Assembly: GCF_030435705.1 (NCBI RefSeq)
Contig: NZ_CP129382.1
Location: 1,736,001-1,800,000, forward strand
Direction of reading: 5' to 3'
DNA length: 64,000 nt
Source of the DNA: Rhizobium sp. SSA_523
Lineage (GTDB): Bacteria; Pseudomonadota; Alphaproteobacteria; Rhizobiales; Rhizobiaceae
Part shown: in pieces, positions 48,854-54,189 of the stretch
How the letters are laid out: the number at the start of each line of letters is the position of its first letter
Position numbering within the stretch: the stretch's first letter is position 1
Position numbers and translations under genes: made by a program
The notes under the pieces: model-generated
What the model was told of the DNA's origin: nothing
The model's database searches: none
Seen by the model: only the letters and a program-made list of their open reading frames with translations

Positions 48854-50107
48854 ATGGTGGCAGCACCAGGCGAAAACCTGCGCGTGAACGGTGACCGGCT
48901 CTGGGACATGCTGATGGAGATGGCCCGCATCGGTCCCGGCATTGCCGGCGGCAACAACCGCCAGACGCTGACCGACGAAGACGGCGAGGGCCGCCACCTG
49001 TTCAAATCCTGGTGCGAAGCGGCAGGCATGAGCGTCGGCGTCGACCAGATGGGCACCATGTTCGCCACCCGCGCCGGGACGGATCCGGATGCTCTGCCGG
49101 TCTATGTCGGAAGCCATCTCGACACCCAGCCCACCGGCGGCAAATATGACGGCGTCCTCGGCGTTCTTTCGGGTCTCGAAGTGGTACGCACGTTGAATGA
49201 TCTCGGCATCCGGACCAGACATCCGATCGTCGTGACGAACTGGGCCAATGAGGAAGGTGCCCGCTTCGCGCCCGCCATGCTGGCTTCCGGCGTGTTTGCC
49301 GGGATCCACTCGCTGGATTACGCCTATGCCCGCAAGGATCCGGACGGCAAGTCCTATGGCGAAGAGCTGCAGAGGATCGGCTGGCGCGGCGATGAAGAGG
49401 TGGGCAAGCGCAAGATGCACGCCTATTTCGAATATCACATCGAACAAGGCCCGATCCTGGAGGCCGAGAACAGAAAGATCGGCGTCGTCACCCATTGTCA
49501 GGGCCTGTGGTGGCTGGAATTCACGCTGACCGGGAAGGAGGCGCATACCGGCTCCACGCCCATGACCATGCGGGTGAATGCCGGTCTTGCCATGGCGCGC
49601 ATCCTGGAAATGGTGCAGGATGTGGCAATGTCCGAGCAGCCGGGCGCGGTCGGCGGCGTGGGCCAGATGGTCTTCTCCCCCAATTCCCGCAATGTCCTGC
49701 CGGGCAAGGTGGTCTTCACCGTCGATATCCGCACCCCCAGCCAGGACAAGCTCGACCGCATGCGGGAAAGGATCGAGGCGCGGGCGCATGAGATCTGCGC
49801 AGCGCTCGGCGTCGGCTGTTCCATCGAAGCGGTCGGCCATTTCGACCCCGTCACCTTCGATCCGACGCTGGTGGATCGGGTGCGCAAGGCCGCCGAAACC
49901 CTCGGCTACAGCCATATGAACCTCATCTCCGGTGCCGGCCACGATGCCTGCTGGGCGGCCAAGGTGGCGCCGGCCACCATGATCATGTGCCCCTGCGTCG
50001 GCGGCCTTTCGCACAATGAAGCGGAAGAGATTTCACGGGAATGGGCCGCCGCCGGTTGCGACGTGCTTTTCCATGCCGTGTTGGAAACGGCGGAGATTGT
50101 GGGGTGA
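48854..50107 (+). CDS. Zn-dependent N-carbamoyl amidohydrolase (beta-ureidopropionase type)
   Basis: This 417-residue M20-family enzyme has metal and catalytic motifs GSHLDTQPTGGKYDGVLGVL, TNWANEEGARFAP, YHIEQGPILE, KEAHTGSTPMTMR and the late His in ISGAGHDACWAAK. The family includes L-N-carbamoylases and the beta-ureidopropionase of Agrobacterium. In this setting it should hydrolyse N-carbamoyl-beta-alanine to beta-alanine, CO2 and ammonia, the last step of the reductive pathway. It is divergent from the RutR-like regulator. Confidence 0.92.
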   Translation: MVAAPGENLRVNGDRLWDMLMEMARIGPGIAGGNNRQTLTDEDGEGRHLFKSWCEAAGMSVGVDQMGTMFATRAGTDPDALPVYVGSHLDTQPTGGKYDGVLGVLSGLEVVRTLNDLGIRTRHPIVVTNWANEEGARFAPAMLASGVFAGIHSLDYAYARKDPDGKSYGEELQRIGWRGDEEVGKRKMHAYFEYHIEQGPILEAENRKIGVVTHCQGLWWLEFTLTGKEAHTGSTPMTMRVNAGLAMARILEMVQDVAMSEQPGAVGGVGQMVFSPNSRNVLPGKVVFTVDIRTPSQDKLDRMRERIEARAHEICAALGVGCSIEAVGHFDPVTFDPTLVDRVRKAAETLGYSHMNLISGAGHDACWAAKVAPATMIMCPCVGGLSHNEAEEISREWAAAGCDVLFHAVLETAEIVG

Positions 50108-50259
50108 GCCTGTTGGTCCGGCAAACTCTCCCATTTGCCGCATGGGCGAACGCTGCCTGTAAAGGGAGCGACGGGACGTCTCTTGCTTCGCCCTCGACAA
50201 GGCTTATGCTGTCATACGGGCGAGCTGCAGGCCAGGCTGACGGCACTGGCCGCGCAGAC

Positions 50260-50305
50260 CCCTTCTCCCCCTGGGGAGAAGGTGCCCGAAGGGCGGATGA
50301 GGGGG
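50260..50305 (+). repeat. Palindromic repeat R1 (left flank of DUF559 gene)
   Basis: The unit has a hairpin CTTCTCCCCC/TGGGGAGAAG, then a second small stem CCCGAA/GGGCGG-like segment, and ends GGATGAGGGGG. It is identical at 45 of 46 positions to the reverse complement of R2 (50746-50791). The terminal GAGGGGG lies just ahead of the GTG starts of the DUF559 gene and may act as its ribosome-binding site. Confidence 0.85.
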
Positions 50306-50310
50306 TGGTC

Positions 50311-50727
50311 GTGTCGCAAGATGATGTCACCAGGCGCCGGCCCGGCAAGACCGTTCAGGCCCGCCGGCTTCGACAGTTGGAGACAGAGGAAGAACATTGT
50401 CTCTGGAGCGATCTCAGGGCGCGCAGGCTTAACGGTTACAAGTTCTCTCGGCAGATACCCCTCGGCCCCTATGTGGTGGATTTTCTGTGTCGTGAGCGTT
50501 CGCTCGTGGTTGAATTGGACGGGATCCAGCATGCGGGAAGCCTGTATGACGACCGGCGCACCAGCTGGCTGAATGCCAGCGGATATTCCGTGATCCGCTT
50601 CTGGAATCACGAGGTTCTCCGGGAACGGCGAGCCGTGCTGGAGACAATTCTGGCAGTTCTGGACGGACGCCTCACGCAAGCCTGCGACACAACCCGGTTT
50701 TCACCCGCAATGCGGAGAGCGAAATGA
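50311..50727 (+). CDS. DUF559 endonuclease-like protein
   Basis: This 138-residue protein has a DUF559 (Vsr/restriction-endonuclease-like) domain: LETEEEHCLWSDLRARRLNG, YKFSRQIPLGPYVVDFLCRE, SLVVELDGIQHAG, LNASGYSVIRFWNHEVL. The acidic and basic residues of the PD-(D/E)xK-like core (VDF, VELDG) are present. The start is a GTG at 50311 or 50305; no in-frame ATG exists upstream of the domain. The gene lies between near-perfect 46-bp inverted repeats. It may be a nuclease that works on, or moves with, these repeats. Confidence 0.82.
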   Translation: MSQDDVTRRRPGKTVQARRLRQLETEEEHCLWSDLRARRLNGYKFSRQIPLGPYVVDFLCRERSLVVELDGIQHAGSLYDDRRTSWLNASGYSVIRFWNHEVLRERRAVLETILAVLDGRLTQACDTTRFSPAMRRAK

Positions 50728-50745
50728 TGCGGCCCGCCGGTGCAG

Positions 50746-50791
50746 CCCCCTCATCCGCCCTTCGGGCACCTTCTCCCCAAGGGGAGAAGGG
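50746..50791 (-). repeat. Palindromic repeat R2 (right flank of DUF559 gene)
   Basis: This is the inverted copy of R1, with one difference in 46 bp (a C/T change in the hairpin loop). It begins 18 bp after the DUF559 stop codon. With R1 it gives the DUF559 unit terminal inverted repeats. No clear target-site duplication was seen outside the pair. Confidence 0.85.
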
Positions 50792-50929
50792 AGCGCGCGC
50801 GCTGTACCGTCAGAGACCATGCTTGACCCCCCTGCTTGCCGAACTTGCAAAGCCAAACCCTTCTGCATCGCTCATGCACATCAAAACGACGCATGACCTG
50901 AGAGAGGGAGCGCATGCGGTGCCTCCTAT

Positions 50930-50974
50930 CCCTTCTCCCCTTGGGGAGAGGTGCCCGAAGGGCGGATGAAGGGG
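50930..50974 (+). repeat. Palindromic repeat R3
   Basis: This is another copy in the R1 orientation (CCCTTCTCCCC-TT-GGGGAGAGG then TGCCCGAAGGGCGGATGA), with minor differences from R1. It lies 46 bp before the hydA ATG and so would be in the hydA leader RNA, where it could fold into a stable hairpin. Confidence 0.8.
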
Positions 50975-51020
50975 AACGCCCAGTGACAGCCCAAGATTAT
51001 TTCCGGGAGAGACACACACC

Positions 51021-52475
51021 ATGACCACAGTCATCAAGAACGGCACCATCGTGACCGCCGATCTCACCTATCGGGCCGACGTGAAGGTGGAGGGCGGCAG
51101 GATCGTCGAAATCGGCCCCAATCTTTCCGGCGACACGGTGCTGGACGCAACCGGCTGCTATGTCATGCCGGGTGGCATCGATCCGCATGTGCATCTGGAA
51201 ATGCCCTTCATGGGCACCTATTCGGCGGATGATTTCGAAAGCGGAACACGCGCCGCCCTTGCCGGCGGCACCACGATGGTCGTCGATTTCTGCCTGCCCG
51301 ATCCCGGCCAGTCGCTTCTTGACGCGCTGAAGCGCTGGGACAACAAGGCAACCCGCGCCAATTGCGACTATTCCTTCCACATGTCCGTCACTTGGTGGGG
51401 CGAGCAGGTCTTCAACGAGATGAAGACGGTGGTGGAAGAGAAAGGCATCAACACCTTCAAGCATTTCATGGCCTATAAGGGCGCGCTGATGGTGAACGAT
51501 GATGAGATGTTCGCCTCCTTCTCGCGCTGCGCCGAACTGGGAGCCCTGCCGCTCGTCCATGCGGAAAACGGCGATGTGGTCGCCGCCATGCAGACCAAAC
51601 TGATGGATGAGGGCAATACCGGCCCCGAGGCGCATGCCTATTCGAGGCCCGCGACGGTGGAGGGCGAAGCGACCAATCGCGCCATCATCATCGCCGACAT
51701 GGCGGGCGCCCCCCTCTATGTCGTGCACACCTCCTGCGAGCAGGCGCATGAGGCCATCCGGCGCGCAAGGCAGAACGGCATGCGCGTCTTCGGCGAGCCG
51801 CTGATCCAGCACCTGACGCTCGACGAGAGCGAATATGCCAATCCGGACTGGGATCATGCCGCACGCCGCGTCATGAGCCCGCCCTTCCGCAACAAGCAGC
51901 ACCAGGACAGCCTCTGGGCCGGTCTCGCAAGCGGCTCGCTGCAGGTGGTGGCAACCGATCACTGCGCCTTCACCACCGACCAGAAACGCTATGGGATCGG
52001 CGATTTCCGCAAGATCCCGAACGGCACCGGCGGCCTGGAAGACCGCATGCCGATGCTGTGGACCTATGGGGTCGCCACCGGCCGCATCACGATGAACGAA
52101 TTCGTGGCCGTGACCTCGACCAATATCGCCAAGATCCTCAACATCTATCCGAGAAAGGGCGCAATTCTGGTGGGAGCCGATGCCGATCTCGTCGTCTGGG
52201 ATCCGCAGAAGGAAAAGACCATCGGCGCCGGCAACCAGCAATCGGCCATCGATTACAATGTCTTCGAAGGCAAAAAGGTGAAGGGCCTGCCGCGCTATAC
52301 GCTGACACGCGGTGCCGTCGCGATCGAGGACGGCGCGGTCAAGACGCGCGAGGGGCATGGCCAGTTCGTCGCCCGCGAGCCCTATCCGGCGGTGTCCAAG
52401 GCGCTTTCGACCTGGAAGGAATTGACGGCTCCGCGCAAGGTGGAGCGCAGCGGCATCCCGGCATCCGGGGTTTGA
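51021..52475 (+). CDS. hydA: Dihydropyrimidinase (D-hydantoinase)
   Basis: This 484-residue cyclic amidohydrolase has metal ligands in GGIDPHVHLEMPF (His56, His58), the carboxylated lysine in FKHFMAYKGAL (about Lys153), His180 in LPLVHAENGD, the VVHTS region and the Asp in ATDHCAF. Substrate-loop residues such as NGTGGLEDRMPML are present. It opens dihydrouracil to N-carbamoyl-beta-alanine, between PreTA and the amidohydrolase. GGGAGAG precedes the ATG. Repeats R3 and R4 flank the gene. Confidence 0.95.
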   Translation: MTTVIKNGTIVTADLTYRADVKVEGGRIVEIGPNLSGDTVLDATGCYVMPGGIDPHVHLEMPFMGTYSADDFESGTRAALAGGTTMVVDFCLPDPGQSLLDALKRWDNKATRANCDYSFHMSVTWWGEQVFNEMKTVVEEKGINTFKHFMAYKGALMVNDDEMFASFSRCAELGALPLVHAENGDVVAAMQTKLMDEGNTGPEAHAYSRPATVEGEATNRAIIIADMAGAPLYVVHTSCEQAHEAIRRARQNGMRVFGEPLIQHLTLDESEYANPDWDHAARRVMSPPFRNKQHQDSLWAGLASGSLQVVATDHCAFTTDQKRYGIGDFRKIPNGTGGLEDRMPMLWTYGVATGRITMNEFVAVTSTNIAKILNIYPRKGAILVGADADLVVWDPQKEKTIGAGNQQSAIDYNVFEGKKVKGLPRYTLTRGAVAIEDGAVKTREGHGQFVAREPYPAVSKALSTWKELTAPRKVERSGIPASGV

Positions 52476-52568
52476 TAATGGAAACATCTAGACCCGCAGC
52501 GCTTGTTACCAAACCTGTCAATTGTCTCTGTGACGTTGATCTTGGTGGAGCCGCGCAGGGCGCGTCCT

Positions 52569-52613
52569 CTTCTCCCCTTGGGGAGAAGGTGGCCCGTAGG
52601 GCCGGATGAGGGG
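52569..52613 (+). repeat. Palindromic repeat R4
   Basis: This copy in the R1 orientation (CTTCTCCCC-TT-GGGGAGAAGG then TGGCCCGTAGGGCCGGATGA) lies 94 bp after the hydA stop. The second stem differs from R1 by compensating changes (GGCCC/GGGCC), which shows that base pairing is conserved. The rest of the 354-bp gap from 52476 to 52829 holds no gene. Confidence 0.8.
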
Positions 52614-52771
52614 TCTTGCGATGACGTCACCCAATTCAGCCTGGAGAAGACGAGACGGCGCTGGAAGGGCGGCTGATTGCTTGCTGCGAACTGACGCGTT
52701 TTTATCCCGCAATCAAACGATGAAGGTGAAAGAGATCAGGTCTTGACGCAAACGATACGGAAAGTTGCTGT

Positions 52772-52818
52772 CCCCTCACCCGGCGCTATCGCGCCACCCT
52801 CTCCCCAAGGGGAGAGGG
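52772..52818 (-). repeat. Palindromic repeat R5 (variant)
   Basis: This inverted copy has CCCTCTCCCC-TT-GGGGAGAGGG as the main hairpin and a different second stem (GGCGC-tatc-GCGCC). It ends 11 bp before the cupin stop codon and could act as part of its 3' end. Confidence 0.7.
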
Positions 52819-52829
52819 GGAGCCTCGCC

Positions 52830-53240
52830 TCACCGCGCCAGCGCATCCAGTTCCGGCAGCAGGACCACGCTCTCCTGCTCGTTGGGATCGGTGCGGGCGA
52901 TGATCGCTGTCGCCGGCTCGTCGGACGTGTTTGCCGGAAGATGCGGCACGCCGGCCGGAATGTAGAAGAGCTCGCCGGCACTGACCACGACATGGTTTTC
53001 CAGCCGGTCGCCGTACCAGGTATCCGCCCGGCCGGCGAGCATGTAGATCGCCGTTTCATGGCTTTCGTGCAGATGCGCCTTGGCCCGCGCACCGGGCGGC
53101 ATGGTGAGAATATGCATGCAGATGCCCTTTGCACCCACCGTCTCCGCCGCAATGCCTTCGAAATAGCTGAGGCCCTGCTTGCCGTCATAGGTGGCGCCCG
53201 GCTTCACCAGCCGGCAGGTGGGCTTTGATGATGCATCCAT
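52830..53240 (-). CDS. Cupin-domain protein
   Basis: This 136-residue single-domain cupin has motif 1 HLHESHETAIYMLAGRADTW and motif 2 AGELFYIPAGVPHLPAN, with three His and one Glu in position to bind a metal. It has no signal peptide. The ATG at 53240 follows GGAGG. It is divergent from the importer operon and opposite to hydA. It may sense or process a pathway intermediate, or act in sugar or amino-acid metabolism; the substrate is unknown. Confidence 0.82.
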   Translation of the reverse strand: MDASSKPTCRLVKPGATYDGKQGLSYFEGIAAETVGAKGICMHILTMPPGARAKAHLHESHETAIYMLAGRADTWYGDRLENHVVVSAGELFYIPAGVPHLPANTSDEPATAIIARTDPNEQESVVLLPELDALAR

Positions 53241-53364
53241 GGTCCATATCCTCCAATTGCGTGCCTGCAGGCGCCTCGCGCCTGCTGCAGGGCCGCTCAC
53301 GGCTTCGGAAGATAGCAGAAATCATGCCCCTGAACACGATCCCCACCCGGCCGGAGACGCTTCG

Positions 53365-54189
53365 ATGACCGCTGCCCCCGCCCCGTTCGCCTCATCTGCC
53401 GTCTCATCTGCCGCATCGGTTGTCTCCGCCCGAGATCTCGGCCTCACCTTCGAAACCGGCGATGGTCCGGTACATGCCCTCACCGGTGTCAATCTGGATA
53501 TCCGCAAGGGCGATTTCGTCTCCTTCATCGGCCCTTCCGGCTGCGGCAAGACCACCTTCCTGCGCGTCATCGCCGATCTCGAACGGCACACGGCGGGAAC
53601 GATCGCGATCAACGGCATGACGCCGGAAAAGGCCCGCCTGGCGCGCGCCTATGGCTACGTCTTCCAGGCCGCCGCCCTTTATCCCTGGCGAACCATCGAG
53701 AAGAACATTGCCCTGCCGCTGGAGATCATGGGCTATGACGCGGCAGACAGAAAGGCGCGCATCGCCGCCATGCTCGATCTCGTCAACCTGACGGGCTTCG
53801 GTCAGAAATATCCGTGGCAGCTCTCCGGCGGCATGCAGCAGCGAGCCTCGATCGCCCGCGCGCTCGCCTTCGATGCCGATCTCCTGCTGATGGACGAACC
53901 CTTCGGCGCGCTGGACGAGATCGTCCGCGACCATCTGAACGAGCAGCTGCTGAAACTGTGGGAAAAGACCAACAAGACCATCTGCTTCGTCACCCATTCC
54001 ATTCCGGAAGCGGTCTATCTCTCCACCCGTATCGTCGTGATGAGCCCCCGGCCCGGCCGGGTGACCGACGTGATCGAATCAACGCTTCCCCGCGACCGGC
54101 CGCTGGAAATCCGCGATACGCCGGAATTCCTGGCGATCGCCCACCGCGTGCGCGAAGGGCTGAAAGCGGGGCACAGTTATGAGGAGTAG
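53365..54189 (+). CDS. NitT/TauT-type ABC importer, ATPase
   Basis: This 274-residue ATPase has Walker A GPSGCGKTTFLRVIADLE, the Q-loop GYVFQAAALYPWRTIEKN, the signature LSGGMQQRASIARALA, Walker [13 protein letters not shown] and switch His CFVTHSIPEA. The Q-loop and GGMQQR sequence are typical of nitrate/taurine/thiamine-precursor importers. It is the first of four co-directional genes (ATPase, two permeases, binding protein). Substrate is probably a pyrimidine, hydantoin or ureido compound, judged from the neighbours. Confidence 0.92.
   Translation: MTAAPAPFASSAVSSAASVVSARDLGLTFETGDGPVHALTGVNLDIRKGDFVSFIGPSGCGKTTFLRVIADLERHTAGTIAINGMTPEKARLARAYGYVFQAAALYPWRTIEKNIALPLEIMGYDAADRKARIAAMLDLVNLTGFGQKYPWQLSGGMQQRASIARALAFDADLLLMDEPFGALDEIVRDHLNEQLLKLWEKTNKTICFVTHSIPEAVYLSTRIVVMSPRPGRVTDVIESTLPRDRPLEIRDTPEFLAIAHRVREGLKAGHSYEE

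What the first reader, a model, noticed from the sequence alone, without database searches (positions are those of the whole stretch)
50260..50791. DUF559 nuclease gene bounded by 46-bp, 45/46-identical inverted repeats: a possible mobile REP-type unit
Seen in sequence: R1 (50260-50305) and the reverse complement of R2 (50746-50791) differ at one base; the enclosed gene encodes a DUF559 endonuclease-like protein. R1 ends in GAGGGGG just before the GTG start, so the repeat seems to supply the ribosome-binding site. At least three further copies lie within 2 kb. Known: REP palindromes of other bacteria can be moved by a dedicated protein (RAYT). Inference: DUF559 could be the mobilising or processing enzyme of this rhizobial repeat family.
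Basis: partly seen in the sequence, partly recalled or inferred. Interest (0 to 1): 0.75.

Follow-up and report, generated by a model that had tools for sequence, protein, structure and literature searches.

The report
Nuclease paired with palindromic DNA repeats
A small, little-studied DNA-cutting enzyme family sits next to, and rises and falls with, a family of scattered palindromic repeats across many bacteria, which suggests (but does not yet show) that the enzyme spreads the repeats.

Summary
In detail: R1 and R2 are 46-nt inverted repeats (45/46) around the genome's only DUF559 gene. They are REPs: a pyrimidine/purine hairpin, a small second hairpin, and a tail (GGATGAGGGGG) facing the gene. 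The link is far wider than guessed. Of 140 DUF559 loci sampled across Pseudomonadota, 138 have such a hairpin within 400 nt (213 of 1,294 neighbouring ORFs), and 65 lie between inverted copies (7 of 1,311 ORFs). Genomes with a clear DUF559 hit carry five or more core hairpins in 76 of 116 cases, against 10 of 236 without DUF559; Y1 transposases make no difference. Some repeat classes follow DUF559 clades, one perfectly. Repeats come as doublets of clustered length, present or absent at sites in relatives. The window's gene is sedentary: its clade sits at one junction in five genera. So 'mobile DUF559 unit' is not the best reading; a resident Vsr/homing-fold nuclease with cognate dispersed REP doublets, working like a RAYT REPtron but with an unrelated enzyme, is. 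That the enzyme moves or copies the repeats is inferred. Among the 14 held papers with a word beginning DUF559, none appears from listing or passages to report the link.

The parts
50260..50305 (+). R1: REP; hairpin CCTTCTCCCC..GGGGAGAAGG, small hairpin GCCCGAAGGGC, tail GGATGAGGGGG facing the gene; corresponds to the right half of an upstream doublet whose left half is not intact here
50311..50727 (+). DUF559 (PF04480) Vsr-fold PD-(D/E)XK-type nuclease gene, probable GTG start, 138 aa; only copy in the genome
50746..50791 (-). R2: REP, inverted relative to R1, tail facing the gene; left half of the downstream doublet
50929..50974 (+). R3: REP, right half of the downstream doublet
50746..50974 (.). 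downstream REP doublet R2-R3, 229 nt; as single-stranded DNA folds at -76.5 kcal/mol, z -11
52566..52613 (+). related REP (GCCCGTAGGGCC variant of the small hairpin, same GGATGAGGGG tail)
52772..52820 (-). related REP with a different small hairpin (GGCGCTATCGCGCC) and tail CCCCTCACCC
48854..50107 (+). upstream neighbour: M20 peptidase-family hydrolase (anchor gene of the site)
51021..52475 (+). downstream neighbour: amidohydrolase, dihydropyrimidinase-like (anchor gene of the site; similar genes are annotated hydA)

Best explanation
This is a REP system with a resident, non-RAYT enzyme. DUF559 is a small Vsr/homing-fold nuclease that recognises its own repeat family (shown: association, orientation, clade matching for some classes; inferred: recognition). 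It nicks or cuts at the hairpin-plus-tail end of REP doublets and/or at short targets that share GG(G)T with the tail end. Host repair then copies a doublet into the break, because a lone nuclease of this fold is not expected to join strands (inferred). The gene is kept under purifying selection and, in the window's clade, stays put, while the doublets are dispersed and present or absent between relatives (shown). The copies touching the gene may reflect local action of the enzyme and supply its ribosome-binding site (inferred).
Against: No cleavage, binding or transposition data. In 75 of 140 loci the two-sided test is negative. 36 of 116 clear-DUF559 genomes have 0-2 core hairpins, and 10 genomes without DUF559 have at least 5; some DUF559-free relatives keep B tails (G024 20, G026 12, G032 29). 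Tail classes F, T, S and A2 are not clade-bound (17, 16, 10 and 4 changes), class A needs 7 changes, the tree has many open forks, and I defined the classes after seeing the tails. The two sides of a gene differ in class in 21 of 78 loci. The two cleanest insertion sites give no clear target duplication, and insertion was not polarised against deletion with a species tree. Co-occurrence does not give the causal direction.
Confidence: 0.58

Rival explanations
1. DUF559 is a Vsr-like repair nuclease (5mC deamination or similar) and the repeats are its binding or regulatory sites; the nuclease does not spread them, it only tolerates or uses them.
For: A Caulobacter DUF559 protein, VsrA, is needed for the SOS response seen when a solitary cytosine methyltransferase is missing, and is predicted to act in mismatch repair (PMC12907096, passages). 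Fold near Vsr. Repeat tail sits at the ribosome-binding position.
Against: Does not explain why dispersed copy number follows DUF559 presence nor why some repeat classes follow DUF559 clades.
Confidence: 0.17
2. Hitch-hiking: repeats are moved by another factor (an unrecognised transposase or a RAYT/TIRYT) and DUF559 genes are cargo or neighbours that travel with them.
For: Di Nocera 2013 reports tyrosine-transposase genes with terminal inverted repeats sharing GGGGWSAS, which a GGGGTGAG tail fits (PMC3733652, section 16; the fit is my own reading). Ten genomes have five or more hairpins and no DUF559. The sites studied are hot-spots for small genes.
Against: The window genome and 20 of the 23 genomes of its family in the draw have no Y1_Tnp match; Y1_Tnp has no effect on hairpin counts; other small genes at the same site carry no such repeats, 0 of 24 intergenic stretches.
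Confidence: 0.15
3. The whole REP-DUF559-REP segment is a transposon-like mobile unit.
For: Inverted flanks. A site 1.8 kb after the dihydropyrimidinase gene, scorable in 15 of 21 loci, holds a DUF559-plus-doublet unit in 2, a doublet alone in 5, nothing in 3, almost nothing in 1, an unrelated gene in 4. Some genomes have 7-10 DUF559 matches, a few of them fragments.
Against: The window's gene is at one site in five genera; its two flanks come from two doublets; relatives have the gene with an upstream doublet only (L127, L130); L143 reads like a remnant of the gene's 3' end. The 80 regions fall in only 25 contexts, the largest with 21 and 19 loci.
Confidence: 0.08

Closest known systems
REPtrons / RAYT (TnpA-REP) with REPINs
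   Same: Gene bordered by REPs, cognate REP class per enzyme, dispersed inverted doublets, abundance correlated with the gene, gene itself not seen to move (features as told in PMC8266576 and PMC3116915, passages).
   Different: Enzyme has a Vsr-type nuclease fold, not HUH-tyrosine; tag is GGATGAGGGG, CAGAGGGGGG or GGGTGAGGG, not GTAG; the window REP has two hairpins; own genome has no Y1_Tnp match.
CGTC-tagged REPs of Alphaproteobacteria
   Same: Short tagged palindromes, mostly as dimers, most in alpha-Proteobacteria; reported to lack a dedicated transposase apparently (PMC3733652, abstract and sections 6 and 16).
   Different: The window repeats do not carry the CGTC tag; no word beginning DUF is found in that paper's main text.
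RIME / ABC repeats of rhizobia
   Same: Recalled only: rhizobial intergenic palindromic mosaics; the window repeats may be of that kind.
   Different: Not compared with published RIME sequences; no Rfam family above its gathering score in 49000-53500.
Vsr and homing endonuclease I-Bth0305I
   Same: Nearest solved folds after the DUF559 structure 3hrl.
   Different: 17-21% identity; no intron, intein or methyltransferase partner was looked for or shown here.
Caulobacter VsrA (CCNA_02930)
   Same: DUF559 protein with genetic evidence of DNA damage in vivo (PMC12907096, passages).
   Different: Its flanks were not examined here.

Membership tests
DUF559 (PF04480) | profile match above cut-off | tested here: met
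   133.9 bits against cut-off 20.6
Vsr-fold nucleases | fold and conserved acidic/histidine residues | tested here: met
   [not shown]
Vsr (very short patch repair) | cuts at T:G mismatches with a partner cytosine methyltransferase | not testable with these tools
   biochemistry needed; partner gene not looked for
RAYT REPtron | HUH-tyrosine (Y1_Tnp, PF01797) enzyme | tested here: not met
   G000 has no PF01797 match at E<=0.001; DUF559 fold is different
RAYT REPtron | GTAG tag beside the hairpin | tested here: not met
   tail is GGATGAGGGGG
RAYT REPtron (by analogy) | enzyme gene flanked by inverted REPs | tested here: met
   window; 65 of 140 loci two-sided, 138 of 140 at least one side
RAYT REPtron (by analogy) | dispersed inverted doublets of set length | tested here: met
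   B doublets 150-199 nt in 32 of 50, A doublets 160-199 nt in 13 of 19; facing-tail order of A tails 6 cases
RAYT REPtron (by analogy) | repeat number tied to enzyme gene | tested here: met
RAYT REPtron (by analogy) | enzyme gene single-copy and not mobile | tested here: inconclusive
   single in G000, in place at one junction in five genera, but 7-10 matches in some genomes and a unit present/absent at a second site
RAYT REPtron (by analogy) | enzyme cleaves cognate REP | not testable with these tools
   biochemistry needed
CGTC REP | CGTC (or TGTC/CCTC) end motif, 8-9 bp stem with AT pairs first | tested here: not met
   sequence and fold of R1-R3 against section 6 of PMC3733652
insertion sequence / MITE | target-site duplication at both ends | tested here: inconclusive
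   two clean occupied/empty pairs share GG(G)T at one junction and show no clear duplication
homing endonuclease | cuts and occupies a specific cognate site | tested here: inconclusive
   fold similar; the gene is intergenic at a conserved junction; cutting not testable

The most novel reading that the evidence does not exclude
DUF559 nucleases are the dedicated enzymes of a third, RAYT-independent superfamily of REPs spread over Pseudomonadota and further phyla: a Vsr/homing-type nuclease that copies cognate REP doublets around genomes by cutting and host repair, a convergent counterpart of the REPtron.
Probability: 0.5. Interest if true: 0.92.

Novelty: new variant of a known kind. Interest (0 to 1): 0.82.

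Why it matters
RAYTs are the enzymes named for GTAG REPs, and a 2013 survey states that the mostly alphaproteobacterial CGTC class apparently lacks a dedicated transposase. Here a widespread domain of unknown function gains a testable role, and a large repeat class gains a candidate enzyme. Where the repeat class follows the DUF559 clade, specificity can be tested by swapping partners. If right, RAYT-like repeat systems arose at least twice with unrelated nucleases, and the DNA damage tied to Caulobacter VsrA may involve repeats as well as methylation sites.

Tried and rejected
Considered and dropped: (1) Rfam RNA family: nothing above a gathering score. (2) RAYT as mover: no dependence on Y1_Tnp; 24 of the 30 Y1 loci had full flanks and none had an inverted repeat scoring 16 or more, but these are the best-scoring Y1 matches, probably IS200-like, so RAYT flanks proper were not tested. 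(3) Hairpin as mere terminator or generic intergenic feature: ORF controls and same-site control. (4) Long synteny comparison of hairpin-rich G203 and G207: about 7 kb of 206 kb collinear in my chain, no use. (5) Plasmid near-matches for empty sites at strain level gave no strain-level empty/occupied pair in the rows I read; four Sinorhizobium-labelled records cover 73-74% of the Shinella site query in two pieces. (6) PMC9927313 holds DUF5590, not DUF559.

Caveats on counts: the score threshold (16) was fixed after the first test and the tail classes; ORF controls come from my own crude gene finder, and short-ORF controls alone gave 0 of 314, 0 of 31, 0 of 67, 1 of 28 and 0 of 58 and 3 of 170. 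Searches hold identical loci (L194/L238, L198/L239, L202/L241, L216/L240). Clade sets list only genomes whose DUF559 loci I held, with G008 and G052 added, so 'others' includes genomes with unassigned DUF559. The co-occurrence test is not corrected for phylogeny; one search is a partial correction on genera that I picked out of the tables. The 80 regions of the window's family were taken mostly in the E-value order of the rows, with skips (five rows near contig starts, some lower rows), and the 60 others by hand from the listed rows; the flanks of these loci had not been read when I chose them (the window's and those had). Named loci: 75 of 80 scored; L321, L325, L328, L352 left out by me and L309 by the script as too near contig ends. 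Some named loci are the same genomes as G handles, so overlap.

Full report
What is there. The window holds, between an M20-type hydrolase gene (48854-50107) and a dihydropyrimidinase-like gene (51021-52475), one DUF559 gene (50311-50727) with R1 (50260-50305) before it and R2 (50746-50791) after it; the arms are 46 nt and 98% complementary. It is the only DUF559 match in the genome. R1 and R2 each fold as two hairpins, CCTTCTCCCC..GGGGAGAAGG and GCCC..GGGC, with an unpaired tail GGATGAGGGGG; R3 alone prefers another fold. R2 pairs with R3 (50929-50974) in a doublet with outward tails that folds at -76.5 kcal/mol, z -11.

The site in relatives. In 30 loci (own genome and 29 relatives) the same intergenic stretch runs from 37 bp (L122, L123, L125) to 1,399 bp; 6 of 30 hold DUF559 and all 6 have the repeats, while none of the 24 others does, although most of these hold other small genes by my reading. 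L135, L140 and L142 read doublet - DUF559 - doublet; L127 and L130 have the upstream doublet only; L143 reads like the 3' end of a DUF559 gene, so loss occurs. Hence R1 and R2 are neighbours from two doublets, not the two ends of one element. In the 80 larger regions of the window's family, 21 hold one of the two anchor genes and in 17 the DUF559 gene lies between them, in five genera (genus codes): it looks inherited in place.

How general. I took 80 DUF559 regions from the window's family and 60 from further genera, families, orders and classes. An inverted repeat scoring 16 or more joins the two flanks in 28 of 80, 7 of 11, 16 of 20, 3 of 9 and 11 of 20 (family, other families of the order, other orders of the class, further genera of the family, other classes of the phylum), against 3 of 874, 0 of 87, 1 of 140, 2 of 67 and 1 of 143 ORFs of the same regions. 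With a gapped aligner the family figure is 32 of 80 against 3 of 874 ORFs and 0 of 314 short ORFs; flanks swapped between genomes still reach 16 in 250 of 2,000, so the repeats are shared between genomes. A REP-type hairpin lies within 400 nt on at least one side in 138 of 140 DUF559 loci and on both sides in 62, against 213 and 16 of 1,294 ORFs. Among named genomes the two-sided figure is 43 of 75 against 4 of 401, with cases in Hydrogenophaga and Sphingomonas and single or few cases in Chloroflexi, Nitrospirae, Deltaproteobacteria and Peribacteria; other loci of Chloroflexi and Deltaproteobacteria are negative. The arms are mostly CCCTCTCCC..GGGAGAGGG-like hairpins. Over 169 loci the nearest tail faces the gene upstream in 92 of 134 (21 away, 21 unclear) and downstream in 71 of 115 (16 away, 28 unclear).

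Genome-wide link. In 397 Pseudomonadota genomes the core hairpin (CCCTCTCCCN{2,8}GGGAGAGGG) occurs five times or more in 76 of 116 with a clear DUF559 hit (E<=1e-20), 8 of 45 with a weak hit and 10 of 236 with none. Of 19 genera holding both states, 16 have more hairpins with clear DUF559, none fewer, 3 tie. Split by Y1_Tnp: 39 of 56 (both), 37 of 60 (clear DUF559 only), 9 of 144 (Y1 only), 9 of 137 (neither). The exceptions on both sides are listed: 36 clear-DUF559 genomes have 0-2 strict hairpins; some of these have palindromes of the same build beside the gene (for example G301 and G216).

Matching of enzyme and repeat. I sorted tails into nine classes after seeing them. On a DUF559 tree of 169 rows (short alignment, 73 open forks) class B (CAGAGGGGGG) is exactly one well supported clade of 38; class A needs 7 changes (shuffled 26.3), C 4 (7.9), H 3 (6.9), while S, A2, T and F are weakly or not clustered; all labels need 47 changes against 112.8 when shuffled. 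The two sides of a gene carry the same class in 57 of 78 loci. Paralogues in one genome (G301, G216) carry different classes. Outside the gene, B tails have a median of 35 copies in 29 genomes where I hold a B-clade gene, 0 in 17 genomes without DUF559 and 5 in all 51 others; A tails 3.5 in 20 genomes, 0 in 17 and 0 in all 60 others. Three DUF559-free relatives still hold 12-29 B tails (G024, G026, G032), which fits loss of the gene after spread, but also shows that the two can part.

Movement. Doublets cluster in length (B: 32 of 50 between 150 and 199 nt; A: 13 of 19 between 160 and 199). Between relatives with about 92% identical flanks a B doublet is present in L046 and absent in L069 and L084, and present in L078 and absent in L070. 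The empty sites read GGTGG and GGGTT where the doublet ends in GGGGGGT, so the junction shares GG(G)T; these are two cases only, without a clear target duplication. At a second site, 15 of 21 loci could be scored: three empty, one nearly so, five with a B doublet, two with another DUF559 gene and its doublet, four with an unrelated gene (contents read by eye, the two DUF559 genes also). Direction (gain or loss) was not polarised.

Mechanism. Shown: the gene-repeat association, tail polarity, clade matching for some classes, doublet build, presence/absence, conserved putative active site. Inferred: that DUF559 binds its cognate REP and cuts at the tail or at GG(G)T-bearing targets, and that host repair does the joining. 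The reverse reading, that repeats serve the enzyme as control sites, is the main rival; it leaves the copy-number link unexplained.

Known or new. It works like a RAYT REPtron but fails its two defining features, the Y1 enzyme and the GTAG tag. It is not CGTC. Searches of the held library listed no paper whose title or abstract start speaks of DUF559 with REPs; a word beginning DUF559 is in 14 held papers, of which I read passages of PMC12907096 and PMC9927313 and saw the others as listings. Subscription papers and bioRxiv are largely outside that library, so this is no proof of novelty.

Noticed in passing
L397 (Sinorhizobium meliloti Ak57, CP090106.1 2668482-2673859): Doublet - DUF559 - doublet, with an ISRm16 (IS4-like) transposase gene just beyond the DUF559; the downstream doublet breaks off on the ISRm16 side, as if the IS had landed in a REP.
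   Followed up: partly
window 50107-51021 and the site about 1.8 kb after the dihydropyrimidinase gene in relatives: Two intergenic sites of this gene cluster are hot-spots that hold unrelated small genes in different species.
   Followed up: partly
P0001, P0006, P0008, P0012, P0014 and others: Deposited DUF559 proteins often carry long N-terminal extensions that look like translated REP doublets (SGPSGHLLPAGEK..FSPTGRRWPEGSDEG); perhaps wrong start calls.
   Followed up: no
G203 region: A hairpin-rich genome also carries a GTAG-type palindromic doublet next to a CTCTCCCC..GGGAGAGGG repeat, so two REP kinds may live in one genome.
   Followed up: no
G129, G090, G371, G166, G194, G199, G230, G316, G286, G531: Ten genomes with five or more core hairpins but no DUF559 match; lost gene or another mover.
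   Followed up: no
[not shown]
   Followed up: no
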